From Rhodobacterales bacterium HKCCSP123 (GTDB lineage Bacteria; Pseudomonadota; Alphaproteobacteria; Rhodobacterales; Rhodobacteraceae), in the NCBI GenBank assembly GCA_015689745.1, contig WVSO01000013.1, forward strand, positions 1 to 61,620: 61,620 nucleotides of DNA. Reading direction: 5' to 3'. Numbering within the stretch: the stretch's first letter is position 1; each line of letters starts with the position of its first letter. This document shows, one piece after another, positions 17,142-52,753 of this stretch. The notes under the pieces were generated by a model. It did not search any database, was not told the DNA's origin, and was given only the letters and a program-made list of their open reading frames with translations. A program made the translations under genes and the position numbers.

Positions 17142-17216
17142 GGCGGCCCCTCGGGATGCGGTTGCACCTCTCTCCTGCCTCATCGCCACGTGCCTGCCAA
17201 GCGGGACTCCAAATGA

Positions 17217-17231
17217 GAACAAAAGGTGAAT
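17217..17231 (+). promoter_or_regulatory. Candidate LexA (SOS) box upstream of dnaE2
   Basis: GAAC, 7 nt, GAAT at 17217-17231, 12 nt before the dnaE2 ATG. Alphaproteobacterial LexA recognises GAACN7GAAC/GTTCN7GTTC, so this matches 7 of 8 defined bases. dnaE2 is an SOS gene in this class, which supports the reading. Confidence 0.5.
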
Positions 17232-17242
17232 ATACTGTCGGC

Positions 17243-20209
17243 ATGGGATTCGCCGAGCTGTCGATCACCTCGAACTTCACCTTCCTCACCGGGGGCTCGC
17301 ACCCCGAGGACTACGCGCGGCGTGCCGCCCTGCTGGGTCTTTCGGCCATCGCCATCGCCGATGTGAATTCCGTCGCGGGCGTGGTGCGGGCCTGGTCCGA
17401 GCTGAAGACGATCGCCGAGGAGATCGCCGAGGCCGAGGCCGCCCGCGCCGATCCCATCGGCCCGCCGAAGCCCGCGCATCTGCCCAACCCACCCCGCGCG
17501 CCCATCGACCATGTGCCGCGGCTTCTGCCCGCGGCCTGCCTTGTGCTGACGGACGGGATGATGCTGACCGCGCTGCCGCGGGACAGGTCGGGCTGGGCGA
17601 GCCTCTGCCGCATCCTGTCGGCGGGGCGGCTGAGGGCCGAGAAGGGCGACTGTCACCTGACGCTCGACGATATCCTCGCCTTTCCAACGGGGCTGGAGCT
17701 GCTGCTTCACGCGCCCGACCGCCCCTCGCCCGACTGGCGCGCGCGGGCCGCGCGGCTGGTGGCGGCTTTGAAGCCGCAGATGCACCTGCTGATGTCCCCT
17801 GCCTATGACGGGCAGGATGCCGCCCGTTTCGCCGCCGCCGAGCGGCTGGCGCTGGCGCTCGACCTCGACACCGTCGCCTCGGCCCGGCCGATCATGCACC
17901 ACGGCGCGCGGCGGCGGCTGACCGATATCCTGACCTGCATCCGCGAGGGGCTGCGCATCGAGGACCTCGGCACCGCGGCACAGGCGAACGCCGAGCAACG
18001 GCTGAGGGGCGAGGCCGAGATGCGCCGCATCTTCCGCGGCCACGAAGAGGCCGTCGGCCGGGCCGGGGAGATCGCCGCGCGGCTCACCTTCGACATCCGC
18101 AGCCTGCGCTACGAATACCCCTCGGAAATCGCCGATGGCGAAACCGCCGCGGATCGGCTGGCCCGGCTGGCGGAGAAGGGCCTGCGCTGGCGCTATCCGC
18201 AGGGCATCCCCGAGCGTGCGCAAAAACAGCTGGAGCACGAGCTGCGGCTGATCGGGAAACTGGGGTATGAGCCCTATTTCCTGACCGTCCATGACATCGT
18301 CGCCTTCGCGCGGTCGCGCGGCATCCTCTGCCAGGGGCGCGGGTCGGCGGCGAACTCGATCACCTGCTATGCGCTGGGTGTGACCAGCGTCTCCCCCGAG
18401 ATCGGGACGATGGTCTTCGAGCGTTTCGTCAGTGAAGCCCGGAACGAGCCGCCCGATATCGACGTGGATTTCGAGCATGAGCGCCGCGAAGAGGTGATCC
18501 AGCACATCTACGAGCGCTACGGCCGCCACCGCGCGGGGCTGTGCGCCACGGTGATCCACTACCGCGGCAAGCGCGCCGTGCGCGAGGTGGGCCGCGCGAT
18601 GGGCCTGTCCGAGGATGTGCTCTCGGCGCTGTCGTCGCAGATCTGGGGGTCATGGTCCAAGACGGGGCCCGAGGTCGCGCGGATGCGCGAGATCGGGCTC
18701 GACCCCGAAAGCCCGCGGCTGAAACAGACCATCCAGCTGATCGAGGAGATCATCGGCTTTCCCCGCCACCTGTCGCAGCATGTCGGCGGCTTCGTCATCA
18801 CCGAAGGCCGGCTGGATGAACTGGTTCCGATCGAGAACGCCACGATGGAGGACCGCACCGTCATCTGCTGGGACAAGGACGACATCGATGCGCTGGGCAT
18901 CCTCAAGGTCGATGTGCTGGCGCTTGGCATGCTTTCTTGTATAAGAAAAGCCTTCGGCCTTCTGCGCCTGCATCACCAGGCCGATTACAGCCTCGCCACG
19001 CTCCCGCCCGAGGATCCGGCGGTCTACGACATGCTGTGCAAGTCCGACTCCTTGGGCGTTTTCCAGGTGGAAAGCCGGGCGCAGATGAATTTCCTGCCGC
19101 GGATGCGGCCGCGCTGTTTCTACGACCTGGTGATCCAGGTGGCGATCATCCGCCCCGGCCCGATCCAGGGCGACATGGTCCACCCCTTCATCCGCCGCCG
19201 CAACGGCGAGGAACCCGTCAGCTTCCCCTCGGACGAGCTGGGCCGGGTGCTGGGCAAGACGCTGGGCGTGCCGCTCTTCCAGGAACAGGCGATGCAGATC
19301 GCCATCACCGGCGCGGGCTTCACGCCCGACGAGGCCGACCGCCTGCGCCGGTCGCTTGCGACCTTCAAGAAACACGGCTCGGTCAGCGAGTTCCGCACCC
19401 GCTTCCTGCGCGGCATGCGCGAGCGCGGCTACGATCAGGATTTCGCAGACCGCTGTTTCTCGCAGATCGAAGGCTTCGGGAGCTATGGCTTCCCCGAAAG
19501 CCACGCCGCCAGTTTCGCCCTGCTGGTCTATGCCTCGGCCTGGCTGAAGCGGCATCACCCCGGCATCTTCGCCTGTGCGCTGCTCAATTCGCAGCCCATG
19601 GGGTTCTACGCTCCCGCCCAGATCGTCCGCGACGCCCGCGAGCATGGGGTGACGGTGCGGCCGGTCTGCGTGAACCGCTCGGCCTGGGATTGCACGATGG
19701 AGCGGACCGAGCGCGGCGACCTCGCGCTGCGGCTGGGGTTCCGCCAGATCAAGGCGATGCGCGAGGAGGAGGCGGATTGGCTGACCGCCGCGCGCGGCAA
19801 CGGCTACACCGCGGTCGAGGATGTCTGGCGCCGCGCGGGGCTGGAGGCACGGACGCTGACCATCCTGGCCGAGGCCGACGCCTTCGCCGCGCTGGGGATC
19901 AGCCGCCGCGACGCGCTCTGGGCCGCGCGTGCGTTGACCCCGAAGACGGAGCTGCCGCTGTTCTCGGGCGACCTGGACGGCGAGGGGATCGTGGAACCGG
20001 CGGTTCACCTGCCGCAGATGACCGAGGGCGAGGCGGTGGTCGAGGATTACGTCGCGATGCGCCTGACGCTTCGCACGCACCCGGTGGCCCTGATCCGCGA
20101 CCGCTTGAGTCCGGGGATCGACCAGCGGCTGCTGGCGGACCCACGTCCTTGCAAGGACGTGGGCAGCGCCTTGCAAGGCGCTGGATCCGCTTTTGCAAAA
20201 GCGGGGTGA
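17243..20209 (+). CDS. dnaE2: Error-prone DNA polymerase DnaE2 (ImuC) with altered, shortened C-terminus
   Basis: Alternative alpha subunit used for damage-induced mutagenesis, normally with ImuA and ImuB. It starts MGFAELSITSNFTFLTGG with the PHP domain (residues about 1-250). Polymerase motifs follow: GRGSAANSITCYALGVTS, the catalytic aspartates in PPDIDVDFEHERREEV (about 410), FPRHLSQHVGGFVIT, and the helix-hairpin-helix-like FGSYGFPESHAASFALLVYA. The protein stops at 988 residues, soon after MRLTLRTHPVALIRDRL. Relatives, as I recall them, continue about 100 residues into an OB-fold. Here the final 20 or so residues are encoded by an array of palindromes (20140-20227). No imuA or imuB is adjacent. 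Whether the protein still works is uncertain. Confidence 0.9.
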   Translation: MGFAELSITSNFTFLTGGSHPEDYARRAALLGLSAIAIADVNSVAGVVRAWSELKTIAEEIAEAEAARADPIGPPKPAHLPNPPRAPIDHVPRLLPAACLVLTDGMMLTALPRDRSGWASLCRILSAGRLRAEKGDCHLTLDDILAFPTGLELLLHAPDRPSPDWRARAARLVAALKPQMHLLMSPAYDGQDAARFAAAERLALALDLDTVASARPIMHHGARRRLTDILTCIREGLRIEDLGTAAQANAEQRLRGEAEMRRIFRGHEEAVGRAGEIAARLTFDIRSLRYEYPSEIADGETAADRLARLAEKGLRWRYPQGIPERAQKQLEHELRLIGKLGYEPYFLTVHDIVAFARSRGILCQGRGSAANSITCYALGVTSVSPEIGTMVFERFVSEARNEPPDIDVDFEHERREEVIQHIYERYGRHRAGLCATVIHYRGKRAVREVGRAMGLSEDVLSALSSQIWGSWSKTGPEVARMREIGLDPESPRLKQTIQLIEEIIGFPRHLSQHVGGFVITEGRLDELVPIENATMEDRTVICWDKDDIDALGILKVDVLALGMLSCIRKAFGLLRLHHQADYSLATLPPEDPAVYDMLCKSDSLGVFQVESRAQMNFLPRMRPRCFYDLVIQVAIIRPGPIQGDMVHPFIRRRNGEEPVSFPSDELGRVLGKTLGVPLFQEQAMQIAITGAGFTPDEADRLRRSLATFKKHGSVSEFRTRFLRGMRERGYDQDFADRCFSQIEGFGSYGFPESHAASFALLVYASAWLKRHHPGIFACALLNSQPMGFYAPAQIVRDAREHGVTVRPVCVNRSAWDCTMERTERGDLALRLGFRQIKAMREEEADWLTAARGNGYTAVEDVWRRAGLEARTLTILAEADAFAALGISRRDALWAARALTPKTELPLFSGDLDGEGIVEPAVHLPQMTEGEAVVEDYVAMRLTLRTHPVALIRDRLSPGIDQRLLADPRPCKDVGSALQGAGSAFAKAG

Positions 20210-20227
20210 GATCCTTGCAAGGATCTC
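20140..20227. repeat. Array of four TGCA-centred perfect palindromes at exact 22-bp spacing
   Basis: Four perfect palindromes lie head to tail: 20140-20163 (24 bp), 20164-20183 (20 bp, CAGCGCCTTGCAAGGCGCTG), 20187-20204 (18 bp, CCGCTTTTGCAAAAGCGG) and 20208-20227 (20 bp, GAGATCCTTGCAAGGATCTC). All share the core TTGCAA while the outer arms differ. Their centres (20151/52, 20173/74, 20195/96, 20217/18) are exactly 22 bp apart. The array encodes the end of DnaE2, contains its stop codon, and finishes 7 nt before the stop of the converging iminopeptidase gene. Confidence 0.9.
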
Positions 20228-20233
20228 GGGCCG

Positions 20234-21223
20234 TCAAAGGCCGTATTTCTCGCGTTTCTCGCCCACGGCCTGCATCACGCGCACAAGCTCCTGGCTGATG
20301 CCCGGCTCCGACAGGGCATGCCCCGCCGCCTTGACCATGTGCAGCCGTCCCGCGGGCCAGCCCGCCAGCAACCTGTGCGCCGAGAGCGGCGGGCAGATCA
20401 TGTCGTAGCGCCCCTGCACGATGGTGCCCGGCACCTGCGCGATGCGGGGCAGGTCGCGGAGGATCTGGCCGTCCTCCTCGAGGAAACCCTTGTTGGTGAA
20501 ATAGTGGTTCTCAAGCCGCGCGAAGGCCCGCGCGTATTCCGCGGGGCTGTCGCCGCCACCGCCGTCGCTGTCCATCGAGGCCAGCGCGTTCTCCCAGGCG
20601 GCCCAGGCCCGCGCATAGCGCGTCTCGATCATCAGGTCGCCGGAGAACAGGCGCCGGTTGTAGGCCGCGATGATGTCGCCGCGCTCGTCCTCGGGGATCA
20701 GCGCGCAGAAGCGCGCCCATTGATCCGGCCAGAACTGCCCGGCGCCGCCGCCGTAGAACCAGTCGAGCTCCCGCTGCATCGACAGGAACACCCCGCGCAG
20801 CGCGAGATAGGCCACCCGGTCGGGATGCGTCTCGGCATAGACAAGGCCCAGCGTCGCGCCCCAGCTGCCGCCGAAGACCGCCCAGCGCTCGATCTCCAGC
20901 GTGCTGCGGATGCGCTCGATATCGGCCACGAGATGCCAGGTCGTGTTGGCCCGCACGCTCGCGTGGGGCCGCGAGCGGCCGCAGCCGCGCTGGTCGAACA
21001 GCACGATCCGCCAGTGTTCGGGGTCGAAGTAGCGCCGCATCGCCGGCGAACAGCCCCCCCCCGGGCCGCCATGCAGCACCACCACCGGCGCCCCCTCGGG
21101 ATTGCCGCATTGTTCGACGTAGATGTGATGGCCGTCGCCCACGTCCAGCATGCGCTGATCGAACGGGTCGATCGACGGGAACAGGTGCGCGGCTGCGCGC
21201 TTTTGGCCGGAGAACTTGTCCAT
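20234..21223 (-). CDS. pip: Proline iminopeptidase (alpha/beta hydrolase)
   Basis: Releases N-terminal proline from peptides in the cytoplasm (peptidase family S33). About 329 residues. The family signature HGGPGGGCSP lies at about residues 51-60, the arginine-rich loop FDQRGCGRSRPHA at about 76-88, the nucleophile Ser in GGSWGATL at about 120, and the C-terminal aspartate/histidine regions in VQGRYDMICPP and KAAGHALSE. ATG 21223 has AGGA 5 nt upstream; an ATG at 21229 is also possible. The gene converges on dnaE2 at the palindrome array, and its own C-terminus looks complete. Confidence 0.92.
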   Translation of the reverse strand: MDKFSGQKRAAAHLFPSIDPFDQRMLDVGDGHHIYVEQCGNPEGAPVVVLHGGPGGGCSPAMRRYFDPEHWRIVLFDQRGCGRSRPHASVRANTTWHLVADIERIRSTLEIERWAVFGGSWGATLGLVYAETHPDRVAYLALRGVFLSMQRELDWFYGGGAGQFWPDQWARFCALIPEDERGDIIAAYNRRLFSGDLMIETRYARAWAAWENALASMDSDGGGGDSPAEYARAFARLENHYFTNKGFLEEDGQILRDLPRIAQVPGTIVQGRYDMICPPLSAHRLLAGWPAGRLHMVKAAGHALSEPGISQELVRVMQAVGEKREKYGL

Positions 21224-51014: not shown

Positions 51015-51680
51015 ATGGCGCGCCTTTATCACTTCGCCCTGTCCCCCTTCTGCCGCAAGGTCCGGCTGGTTCTGGCCGAGAAGCGCATCGAGGTGGAGCT
51101 GATCGACGAGAAATACTGGGAACCGACCACGGAATTCCTGCGCCGCAACCCCGCGGGGAAGGTGCCGGTGCTGAAGATCGACGGCATGCACCTGACCGAA
51201 TCGAACGCCATTTGCGAATACCTAGAGGAAACGCGGCCGGAACCGCCGCTGATGCCCTCCGACCCCAAGGCGCGCGCCGAGGTGCGCCGGATCGTGAACT
51301 GGTTCGACGACAAGTTTCACCACGAGGTGACGGCGAACCTCGTGTACGAGCGCGTCAACAAGAAGATCATGCGCGGCGGCTACCCCGACGGGAAGGCGGT
51401 GAAGACCGGCGCGCAGCAGATCAAGTACCACCTCGACTACATGGCCTGGCTGCTGGATCACCGGCGCTGGCTGGCGGGCGACGCGATGACCCTGGCCGAT
51501 TTCACCGCCGCCGCGCACCTGTCCTGCCTCGACTACATCTCGGACGTCGACTGGAACCGTTCCGAGGTGGTCAAGGACTGGTATGCCAAGGTTAAATCCC
51601 GGCCGGCCTTCCGCTCGATCCTCGCCGACCAGATCCCCGGCTTCATCCAGCCGCCGCATTACGCGAATCTCGACTTTTGA
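51015..51680 (+). CDS. Glutathione S-transferase family protein
   Basis: 221 residues. The N-terminal thioredoxin-like domain shows [40 protein letters not shown] and [11 protein letters not shown]. The C-terminal helical domain shows [21 protein letters not shown] Ser or Cys in SPFC near residue 11-14 could be catalytic. The substrate is unknown. Its stop overlaps the TTG start of queG (TTGA). Confidence 0.9.
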
Positions 51681-52753
51681 CCGATCTGAAACATGCCCTT
51701 CTGACCGAGGCCCGCGCGGCGGGCTTCGCAAGGATGGGCGTCTGCCGCCCCGACGCGATCCCCGAGGCCGCCGGGCGGCTGGCCGAGTTCGTGGCCCAGG
51801 GGCGGCACGGCCAGATGGGCTGGATGGCCGAGCGCATGGGCTGGCGCGGCGACCCCGCGGCGCTCTGGCCCGAGGCGCGCTCGGTCATCCTGCTGGCGGA
51901 ACCCTACACGCCAAGGGCCGATCCGCTGGAGGCTTTGACGCGGCGCGACCGGGCCACGATCAGTGTCTACGCGCAGAACAGGGACTATCACGACCTCGTC
52001 AAGAAGCGCCTCAAACGGGTGGGGCGCTGGCTTCTGGACCGGGCCGAGCGCGAAACTGCAGTTTCGCGGCCCGGAAAACTGCAGTTTTCCGCCCCGCCCC
52101 GGATCAAGGTTTTCGTCGACACCGCCCCGGTGATGGAAAAGCCCCTGGCGCAGGCCGCGGGCCTCGGCTGGCAGGGCAAGCACACGAACCTTCTGTCGCG
52201 CGACCTCGGCAACTGGTTTTTCCTCGGCGCGATCTTCACCACCATCGAGCTTGAACCGGACCCGCCGCAGTCCGAGCATTGCGGCTCATGCACCGCCTGC
52301 CTCGACATCTGCCCGACCGCGGCCTTTCCCGCGCCCTTCCAGCTCGACGCGCGGCGCTGCATTTCCTACCTCACCATCGAGCACAAGGGCCCGGTCCCGC
52401 TTGATCTGCGCGAGAAGATGGGCAACCGCATCTATGGCTGCGACGATTGCTTGGCCGTCTGCCCCTGGAACAAGTTCGCGGCGGAGGCGACGGAACTGCG
52501 CTATGCTGCGCGGGCGGAGCTGCAAAGCCCGCGCCTCGAGGAGTTGGCCAAGCTCGACGATGCCGGGTTCCGCGCGATGTTCGCGGGCTCCCCCATCAAG
52601 CGCATCGGGCGGAACCGCTTCGTGCGGAACGTGCTCTACGCGATCGGGAACTCGGGCGAAAAACGGCTCGAACCCGCCGCGCAGAGCCTGACGGATGATC
52701 CCGACCCCACGGTCGCCGAGGCCGCCCGCTGGGCGGTGGAAAGGTTGAAATGA
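51677..52753 (+). CDS. queG: Epoxyqueuosine reductase QueG, with a palindromic in-frame insertion
   Basis: 358 residues from TTG 51677. Cobalamin- and Fe-S-dependent enzyme that completes queuosine in tRNA. It shows [71 protein letters not shown], two ferredoxin motifs ([29 protein letters not shown]) and a short HEAT-like end ([18 protein letters not shown]). Between [20 protein letters not shown] and IKVFVD the protein has extra residues [20 protein letters not shown]. These are encoded by two perfect palindromes (52049-52091). The frame stays open, so the enzyme may tolerate this loop. The stop overlaps the next gene. Confidence 0.93.
52049..52091. repeat. Two tandem TGCA-centred palindromes inside queG
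   Basis: Perfect 20-bp palindromes CGCGAAACTGCAGTTTCGCG (52049-52068) and CGGAAAACTGCAGTTTTCCG (52072-52091). They share the core AAACTGCAGTTT and their centres are 23 bp apart. Same architecture as the dnaE2 array but with a different core and arms. In-frame in queG. Confidence 0.88.

What the first reader, a model, noticed from the sequence alone, without database searches (positions are those of the whole stretch)
20140..20227. Four perfect palindromes on a strict 22-bp grid, all centred on TTGCAA, at the end of dnaE2
Each unit is a loop-free perfect palindrome of 18-24 bp. The cores are the same (TTGCAA), but the arms differ from unit to unit while remaining self-complementary. Centres are exactly 22 bp apart, about two helical turns, so all face one side of the DNA. 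Ordinary tandem duplication would copy the arms. Covarying arms around a fixed core suggest either selection for cruciform/hairpin structure or dimeric protein sites, or a mechanism that generates palindromes. I cannot assign it to a repeat family I know. It resembles Rickettsia palindromic elements in principle, not in sequence.
Basis: seen in the sequence. Interest (0 to 1): 0.82.

Follow-up and report, generated by a model that had tools for sequence, protein, structure and literature searches.

The report
Hairpin quartets just after stop codons
Some bacteria related to Roseicyclus carry short clusters of about four perfect DNA palindromes right after stop codons; the centre of each hardly ever changes while its two arms change mostly together, which points to a family of RNA-hairpin elements not seen described, and not to chance.

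Summary
In detail: four loop-free palindromes of 24, 20, 18 and 20 bp, all centred on TTGCAA, centres exactly 22 bp apart, between convergent dnaE2 and a prolyl aminopeptidase gene. It is one member of a genome-wide family: TTGCAA-N16-TTGCAA occurs 35 times in this genome (control 0), 36-61 times in three of 12 congeners, and arrays sit at the same two loci in two species of another genus. In 83 arrays (305 units, four genomes) the 6-bp arms come in 57 versions yet are 98-100% self-complementary; the core changes 0-0.7% where spacers and third codon positions change 10-33%. At the larger distance arm changes are almost all mirrored (27:4, 27:1, 22:0). 35 of 41 arrays lie within 15 nt of a stop codon; none of 38 lies between divergent genes. 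One sits inside a transporter operon, so it is not simply a terminator. No RAYT transposase was found. A sister kind (fixed arms, variable palindromic centre) occurs in the genus, once inside queG.

The parts
20140..20163 (.). palindrome unit 1, CCCACGTCC-TTGCAA-GGACGTGGG
   Evidence: hairpin at the same place in G100, G108, G105, G107, G111
20164..20183 (.). palindrome unit 2, CAGCGCC-TTGCAA-GGCGCTG
   Evidence: inner 16 bp identical in six species
20187..20204 (.). palindrome unit 3, CCGCTT-TTGCAA-AAGCGG
   Evidence: hairpin with another sequence and a non-palindromic centre in G107 and G111
20208..20227 (.). palindrome unit 4, GAGATCC-TTGCAA-GGATCTC
   Evidence: different but mirrored arms in G111
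20140..20227 (.). whole four-hairpin array; window 20130-20240 folds into four hairpins on both strands (z -6.6 and -6.5)
17156..20209 (+). dnaE2 (error-prone DNA polymerase), open frame running into the array
   Evidence: NF004225, 1224.6 bits
20234..21259 (-). convergent prolyl aminopeptidase (pip), stop 6 bp from the array
   Evidence: TIGR01249

Best explanation
The 88 bp are one copy of a dispersed, REP-like element: about four 22-23 bp palindromes in tandem, placed within a few bases of stop codons. In RNA each unit forms a hairpin topped by UUGCAA. Because the units are perfect palindromes, both mRNAs of a convergent gene pair carry the same hairpins, so one array can serve two genes; between co-directional genes it serves the upstream gene. 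Shown by sequence comparison: dispersal, stop-codon position, strong conservation of the core, mostly mirrored change of the arms, retention at orthologous sites. Inferred: that the acting form is RNA, that the array shields or shapes mRNA 3' ends (barrier to 3' exonucleases, possibly ribosome or polymerase hindrance next to the stop codon), and that a protein or another RNA reads the UUGCAA top, which would explain why it is kept better than the stems. How copies spread is unknown.
For: 35 TTGCAA-N16-TTGCAA in this genome, control 0. Of 41 arrays of G000 and G104, 35 have an edge within 15 nt of a stop codon or overlapping it. Of 38 with both neighbours called, 19 lie between convergent genes (background 101 of 619 junctions, P 1.6e-6) and 0 between divergent ones (background 101 of 619, P 0.001). 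305 units, 57 different 6-bp arms, 98.4-100% paired at arm positions 4-9 against 30-75% expected if the sides were independent; units were admitted with at most 2 mismatches, which left out only 2 of 307 TTGCAA in and beside the arrays. Divergence G000-G100: core 0.6%, arms 2.9%, spacers 21%, third codon positions 23%. Mirrored against other arm changes at the G104 distance: 27:4, 27:1, 22:0. Orthologous arrays in genus g103: 99.0% of 192 cells paired and 16 cells changed on both sides, values reached by 0 of 500 shuffles. Strong folding on both strands. At one convergent junction where G000, G100 and G104 have arrays, G103 has an ordinary hairpin; at the site of another G000 array, G105 has a terminator-like hairpin with a short T run.
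Against: No expression data; the acting form could be DNA. Plain RNA hairpins usually tolerate G-U pairs and free loops: G-T pairs are 2 of 1830 here, and in the sister kind even the 4-nt centre is mostly self-complementary (57 of 75 printed sites). Most genomes searched lack the arrays, and array-free relatives have the same genes abutting or overlapping, so the element is dispensable. Flanking genes show no common function. At the shortest distance (G100-G108) the few arm changes are one-sided (0 mirrored, 4 not). In the covariation count the number of pairs changed on both sides (6) was reached by 22 of 500 shuffles and the number of pair types (7) was below the shuffled mean (9.8); the structure was taken from one of the rows. 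The gene caller was home-made.
Confidence: 0.5

Rival explanations
1. Selfish palindromic repeats (MITE-like or RPE-like) that spread as whole modules and end up after stop codons because insertion there is harmless; symmetry of the arms is kept by template switching and gene conversion between copies, not by a function of the hairpin.
For: Same unit order at unrelated loci. Patchy presence with empty sites: of 19 genomes read at the hisQ-hisM site 3 have the array, 15 have the two genes sharing ATGA and 1 (G181) has another insert; look-alike sequences flank the array in G104. Two G104 arrays 11 kb apart carry the same four arms although their orthologues differ. Mirrored changes cluster in units, variance/mean 1.7-2.0. 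A sister-kind pair lies in frame in queG. Template switching is a published route to perfect stems (PMC8794818, abstract and Discussion read).
Against: A neutral repeat should not keep its core 15 to 37 times better than its own spacers (three close comparisons; no core change in the three with G104), nor be retained in both genera at one junction with the same GGGCGT unit. No RAYT-type partner found; other transposase families were not searched.
Confidence: 0.27
2. Bidirectional transcription terminators of an unusual kind.
For: Enrichment between convergent genes; an ordinary or terminator-like hairpin at the orthologous site in G103 and G105.
Against: No terminator-like site with a T run in this array on either strand. 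The array between two permease genes of one operon is present in three species of two genera, where full termination would be self-defeating. In Bacillus cereus terminators loops are the least kept part, 62% of columns invariant against 91% of stems (PMC5381666, Results part 1 read); here the loop is the best-kept part.
Confidence: 0.12
3. Binding sites for a dimeric DNA-binding protein, phased on one face of the helix.
For: Palindromic, constant core, spacing of about two helical turns in this array.
Against: A protein that ignores the middle arm positions would leave left and right free to differ; they are 99-100% complementary there (positions 5-7). Position after stop codons and never between divergent genes. 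Spacing 23 is also common, 58 of 222 steps.
Confidence: 0.08
4. Chance or codon-driven pattern at the end of dnaE2.
For: The dnaE2 frame runs through three of the units.
Against: Chance about 2e-18; same kind of array at 20 other G000 places read here, beside unrelated genes; several congeners lack it at this site while keeping dnaE2.
Confidence: 0.01

Closest known systems
REP / BIME elements (GTAG- and CGTC-tagged palindromes with RAYT transposases)
   Same: Short extragenic palindromes, often grouped, hairpin-forming. Preserved pairing through complementary mutations has been remarked for Stenotrophomonas REPs (PMC2817692, passages) and complementary stem changes are noted for tagged REP families (PMC3733652, passages). 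A study cited in PMC12306157 (passages) found that E. [quoted passage not shown]
   Different: No GTAG or CGTC tag, no RAYT, perfect palindromes without head or tail, tandem of about four, constant core with 57 different 6-bp arms in four genomes.
Bidirectional intrinsic terminators
   Same: Hairpins shared by convergent genes; stems evolve by compensatory changes (PMC5381666, abstract and Results part 1; PMC7566282, passages).
   Different: Several hairpins, no T run in the array scanned, loop kept better than stem, G-T pairs 2 of 1830 here against about 4-5% G-U in the Bacillus set, also inside an operon.
Rickettsia palindromic elements (recalled, not looked up)
   Same: Dispersed palindromes in an alphaproteobacterium; the sister-kind pair inside queG is an in-frame insertion.
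   Different: The TTGCAA arrays are placed after stop codons, not inside reading frames; sequence likeness was not tested.
Long perfect coding palindromes of Nematomorpha mitochondria (PMC6649704, abstract and outline only)
   Same: Perfect inverted repeats kept in functional sequence.
   Different: Much longer, within proteins, in an animal organelle.

Membership tests
REP element | extragenic palindromic repeat of 20-40 bp in many copies | tested here: met
   units mostly 18-26 bp; 62 neighbouring pairs in this genome; 83 of 92 palindromes of 18 bp or more in the G000 sample are outside called genes (the sample was chosen around arrays)
REP element | unpaired GTAG or CGTC tag at one end | tested here: not met
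   no fixed tetranucleotide at unit ends; positions 10-14 are variable (sequences)
REP element | cognate RAYT (Y1 transposase, PF01797) in the genome | tested here: not met
   0 of 13 genus genomes and 0 of 7 genomes with arrays or palindrome runs (G000 and G104 are in both); control genomes 5 of 14 positive
Intrinsic transcription terminator | G+C-rich hairpin followed by a T run | tested here: not met
   0 sites in window 19900-20500; only this array was scanned
Intrinsic transcription terminator | ends transcription units | tested here: inconclusive
   19 of 38 between convergent genes, but one inside an ABC-transporter operon in three species
Rickettsia palindromic element | in-frame insertion inside protein genes (recalled definition) | tested here: not met
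   35 of 41 TTGCAA arrays have an edge within 15 nt of a stop codon; the CTGCAG pair in queG would meet it
Known Rfam RNA family | match to a covariance model | tested here: not met
   no match with E up to 1 in window 19900-20500
Transcription-factor operator | only contacted positions conserved, others free | tested here: not met
   variable arm positions remain complementary

The most novel reading that the evidence does not exclude
A two-part code at mRNA 3' ends: the hairpin top UUGCAA is read by sequence (by an unknown RNA-binding protein, or by loop-loop pairing, since it is self-complementary) while the stems are read only as structure; arrays of four such hairpins mark some twenty or more unrelated places per genome, and the palindromic form lets one DNA element mark both convergent transcripts. 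Related kinds in the same genomes vary the centre and keep the arms, mostly palindromic to the axis, as if a DNA-level process kept rewriting one half from the other.
Probability: 0.25. Interest if true: 0.85.

Novelty: new variant of a known kind. Interest (0 to 1): 0.72.

Why it matters
It is a compact natural experiment on how perfect stems are kept over time: dozens of hairpins per genome, species at graded distances, near-neutral spacers in between, and a core that something seems to read. It could separate selection on RNA structure from DNA template switching as the source of compensatory changes, and may lead to an unknown factor acting near stop codons in Rhodobacteraceae. The literature searches made here (open-licence papers only) listed no title or abstract describing this family.

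Tried and rejected
Chance or codon pattern: rejected. Restriction to one species: rejected. RAYT-driven REP: no such transposase found. Known Rfam RNA: none. Phage origin: 29 viral contigs match the triple-TTGCAA pattern, but in the stretches held none has two TTGCAA units with arms of 7 or more within 60 bp. Regulon: 30 proteins next to 20 G000 arrays (dnaE2, pip and the radical-SAM gene not counted) are mostly of unrelated kinds; 27 of 30 have a Pfam match at 1e-5. Arrays elsewhere in the family: 80 named dnaE2 loci (1.6 Mb) gave only 2 weak clusters of three or more hairpins. Of the 30 other family genomes with a TTGCAA pair, flanks were read for 7 (17 loci): G062, G025 and G002 do hold palindrome runs with TTCGAA or TTGCAA cores, G048, G054, G086 and G038 showed none. 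So the general architecture is wider than this genus.

Errors on the way: the first gene calls in G104 were in the wrong frame and were redone with the G000 codon model; one search counts the two neighbouring arrays of L139 separately. One search misaligned the L187/L223 array and gave 6 false mirrored changes for G100-G108; one search replaces it (18 of 85 array pairs with unequal unit numbers were dropped there). Alignments A1, A2 and A3 had rows off register or in the wrong orientation and were not used for counts; A4 was. The 57 of 75 figure was tallied by hand from the part of the listing that was printed (75 of 308 sites); the copies are related, so its P value overstates. The P values for gene context use junctions from regions chosen around arrays as background. 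A check that the hisQ frame is open before ATGA was true of all 19 genomes, those with arrays included, so by itself it proves little; the overlap in 15 genomes rests on reading the sequences as well.
Full report
WHAT IS THERE. Four perfect, loop-free palindromes of 24, 20, 18 and 20 bp lie at 20140-20227, all centred on TTGCAA with centres exactly 22 bp apart. They fill the gap between dnaE2 (+, reading frame to 20209) and a convergent prolyl aminopeptidase gene (-, stop at 20234). Chance is excluded.

A GENOME-WIDE FAMILY. TTGCAA-N16-TTGCAA is found 35 times in this genome, against 0 for the pattern read backwards; with spacers of 14-20 the count is 62. In the genus (13 genomes held) the counts are 35, 37, 61 and 36 in G000, G100, G104 and G108, 1 in G111 and 0 in the other eight. 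Of 100 genomes drawn from the family, G000 and 30 others have a match; the 30 have 1-6 each, 19 of them one; flanks were read in 7 (17 loci), and palindrome runs were seen in G062, G025 and G002. In 390 genomes of the order the stricter triple pattern is frequent only in G000 (34), G104 (52) and two species of another genus, G334 (13) and G261 (7); 8 other genomes have 1-2 matches, and the six of these whose loci were read are not palindromic arrays. G100 and G108 were not among the 390. The genus is probably Roseicyclus: a record named uncultured Roseicyclus falls inside it in a DnaE2 tree (support 93/86, below the strong mark).

ANATOMY. In 83 arrays from G000, G100, G108 and G104 (21, 21, 21, 20; regions chosen because they hold arrays) there are 55 with four units, 23 with three, 3 with two and 2 with five; 199 of 222 steps are 22 or 23 bp. 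The next six positions of each arm come in 57 versions among 305 units and are paired in 98.4-100% of units, where independent sides would give 30-75%. 16 of 1830 arm pairs are mismatched, and 2 of these are G-T. The same order of arms recurs at unrelated loci (GGGTCT, GGGCGT, GGCTCT, GAAACC twice in G104), so whole modules were copied.

RATES. Aligned orthologous arrays of G000 and G100 differ at 0.6% of core, 2.9% of inner arm, 13% of tenth arm position, 21% of spacer and 23% of third codon positions. Against G104 no core site differs (0 of 204, 186 and 204), the arms differ by 13-15% and third codon positions by 26-27% (units with an intact core in the first genome). When units with one changed core base are admitted, 5 of 254 unit comparisons differ in the core. 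So core and arms are under strong constraint and the spacers are about neutral. Arm changes, mirrored against not mirrored: G100-G108 0:4, G000-G100 9:5, G000-G108 9:4, G000-G104 27:4, G100-G104 27:1, G104-G108 22:0 (the comparisons share events). One-sided changes therefore look young and are later removed or matched. Of 94 mirrored differences 70 are transition-type (CG/TA 49, AT/GC 21) and 24 transversion-type, as expected if a single mismatch comes first. They cluster in units (variance/mean 1.7-2.0), which also allows replacement of whole units; one such case is unit 4 of L023, whose arms in G100 and G108 equal those of a unit in another array.

POSITION. In G000 and G104, 35 of 41 arrays have an edge within 15 nt of a stop codon or overlap it. 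With both neighbours called, 19 of 38 lie between convergent genes, 11 and 8 between co-directional ones, 0 between divergent ones; of 619 junctions in the same regions 101 are convergent, 417 co-directional and 101 divergent. Neighbouring genes are diverse: SSB, transketolase, PmbA/TldD, glutamine-synthetase-like, SufE and others.

ORTHOLOGOUS SITES. dnaE2-pip: four TTGCAA hairpins in G000, G100 and G108; hairpins at similar spacing but with other arms and partly other loops in G107 and G111; units 1 and 2 intact and the rest decayed in G105; genes abutting with no array in G101, G102 and G110; other sequence at this place in G104, G103 and G106; the G109 locus did not show the junction. Radical-SAM junction: arrays in G000, G104, G261 and G334, the gene without array in six other species of the second genus, and the array also in G100 and G108, where the gene was not found at the threshold used. 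On the six array sequences 99.0% of 192 cells pair and 16 cells have changes on both sides, reached by 0 of 500 shuffles; 6 pairs have a change on both sides, reached by 22 of 500, and there are 7 further pair types against 9.8 in shuffles (structure taken from the G000 row). hisQ-hisM: arrays in G104, G261 and G334 (one stem mismatched in G334); of the other 16 of 19 genomes read, 15 have the two genes sharing ATGA and G181 has an insert with other hairpins (G106 and G107 were cut short and not read). A gene tree puts G104 with its own genus and G261/G334 with theirs, so the shared array means either old presence with many clean losses or repeated insertion at one site. At another convergent junction G103 has an ordinary hairpin where G000, G100 and G104 have arrays, and G105 has a terminator-like hairpin at the site of a G000 array.

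SISTER KINDS. GGAAAAC-N4-GTTTTCC is present in all 13 genus genomes, 1-55 times, control 0. Here arms are fixed by the search and the centre varies, but it is self-complementary in 57 of the 75 sites printed (TGCA, TCGA, CCGG, GCGC). It too forms runs of 3-4 next to stop codons, e.g. in G103. A third kind is CGAATTTTCGTACGAAAATTCG. In samples not chosen for arrays, G103 has 21 palindromes of 18 bp or more per 400 kb against 3.6 expected from base composition alone, G105 9 against 2.5, and 80 named relatives 34 per 1.6 Mb against 10. A CTGCAG pair of the second kind lies inside this window's queG at 52049-52091, in an insert of 10-16 residues against three relatives.

HOW IT PROBABLY WORKS. The sequence folds into four hairpins on either strand. 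Stem identity is fairly free, stem pairing is not, and the UUGCAA top is kept best. This is the reverse of Bacillus cereus terminators, where loops are freest and G-U makes up about 4-5% of stem pairs (PMC5381666), and it suggests that the top is read by sequence. REPs close to stop codons lower translation in E. coli (study cited in PMC12306157), and hairpins after a stop codon commonly shield mRNA (general knowledge). A palindromic element can serve both convergent mRNAs. Shown: dispersal, position, constraint, mirrored change. Inferred: RNA as the acting form, the loop reader, the effect on the mRNA.

WHAT SPEAKS AGAINST. Symmetry that reaches the axis in the sister kind and the near absence of G-U pairs are more than a one-strand RNA hairpin needs; use on both strands explains the lack of G-U in convergent pairs only. 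Template switching in replication can make and mend perfect stems (PMC8794818, abstract and Discussion) and may contribute. Most relatives searched live without the arrays.

VERDICT. Real, not chance, probably functional, REP-like in place and form but outside the REP definition tested here (no tag, no RAYT). New variant of a known kind, with an unexplained reader of the core and an unexplained mode of spread.

Noticed in passing
window 52049-52091: Two perfect 20-bp palindromes (cores CTGCAG) lie in frame inside queG (51677-52753), where QueG of Mameliella, Cognatishimia and a solved structure are 10-16 residues shorter; resembles in-frame palindromic inserts.
   Followed up: partly
L029:3913-3980: Run of three palindromes with cores TTCGAA, TTCGAA and GTCGAC shortly after a stop codon in the same genome; TTCGAA-core runs also occur in genomes G062 and G025.
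   Followed up: partly
L021:14654-14675 and L033:6398-6419: Identical 22-bp palindrome CGAATTTTCGTACGAAAATTCG at two places; the same or a near-same one is paired with GCGATTATTCGTACGAATAATCGC or a variant in G103 (L167, L176) and G105 (L156).
   Followed up: no
window 17156-20209: DnaE2 matches its family model only to position 938 of 1047, so the C-terminal part looks absent; array-free congeners have open frames of similar length (984-1015 aa in G101, G102, G103 and G110).
   Followed up: no
L139:9660-9830 (G104): Two TTGCAA arrays lie about 45 bp apart at one junction where G000, G100 and G108 have a single one.
   Followed up: no
L313, around the array in the hisQ-hisM operon of G104: Similar short sequences around ATGA flank the array on both sides, possibly a target duplication; not tested at other sites.
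   Followed up: no
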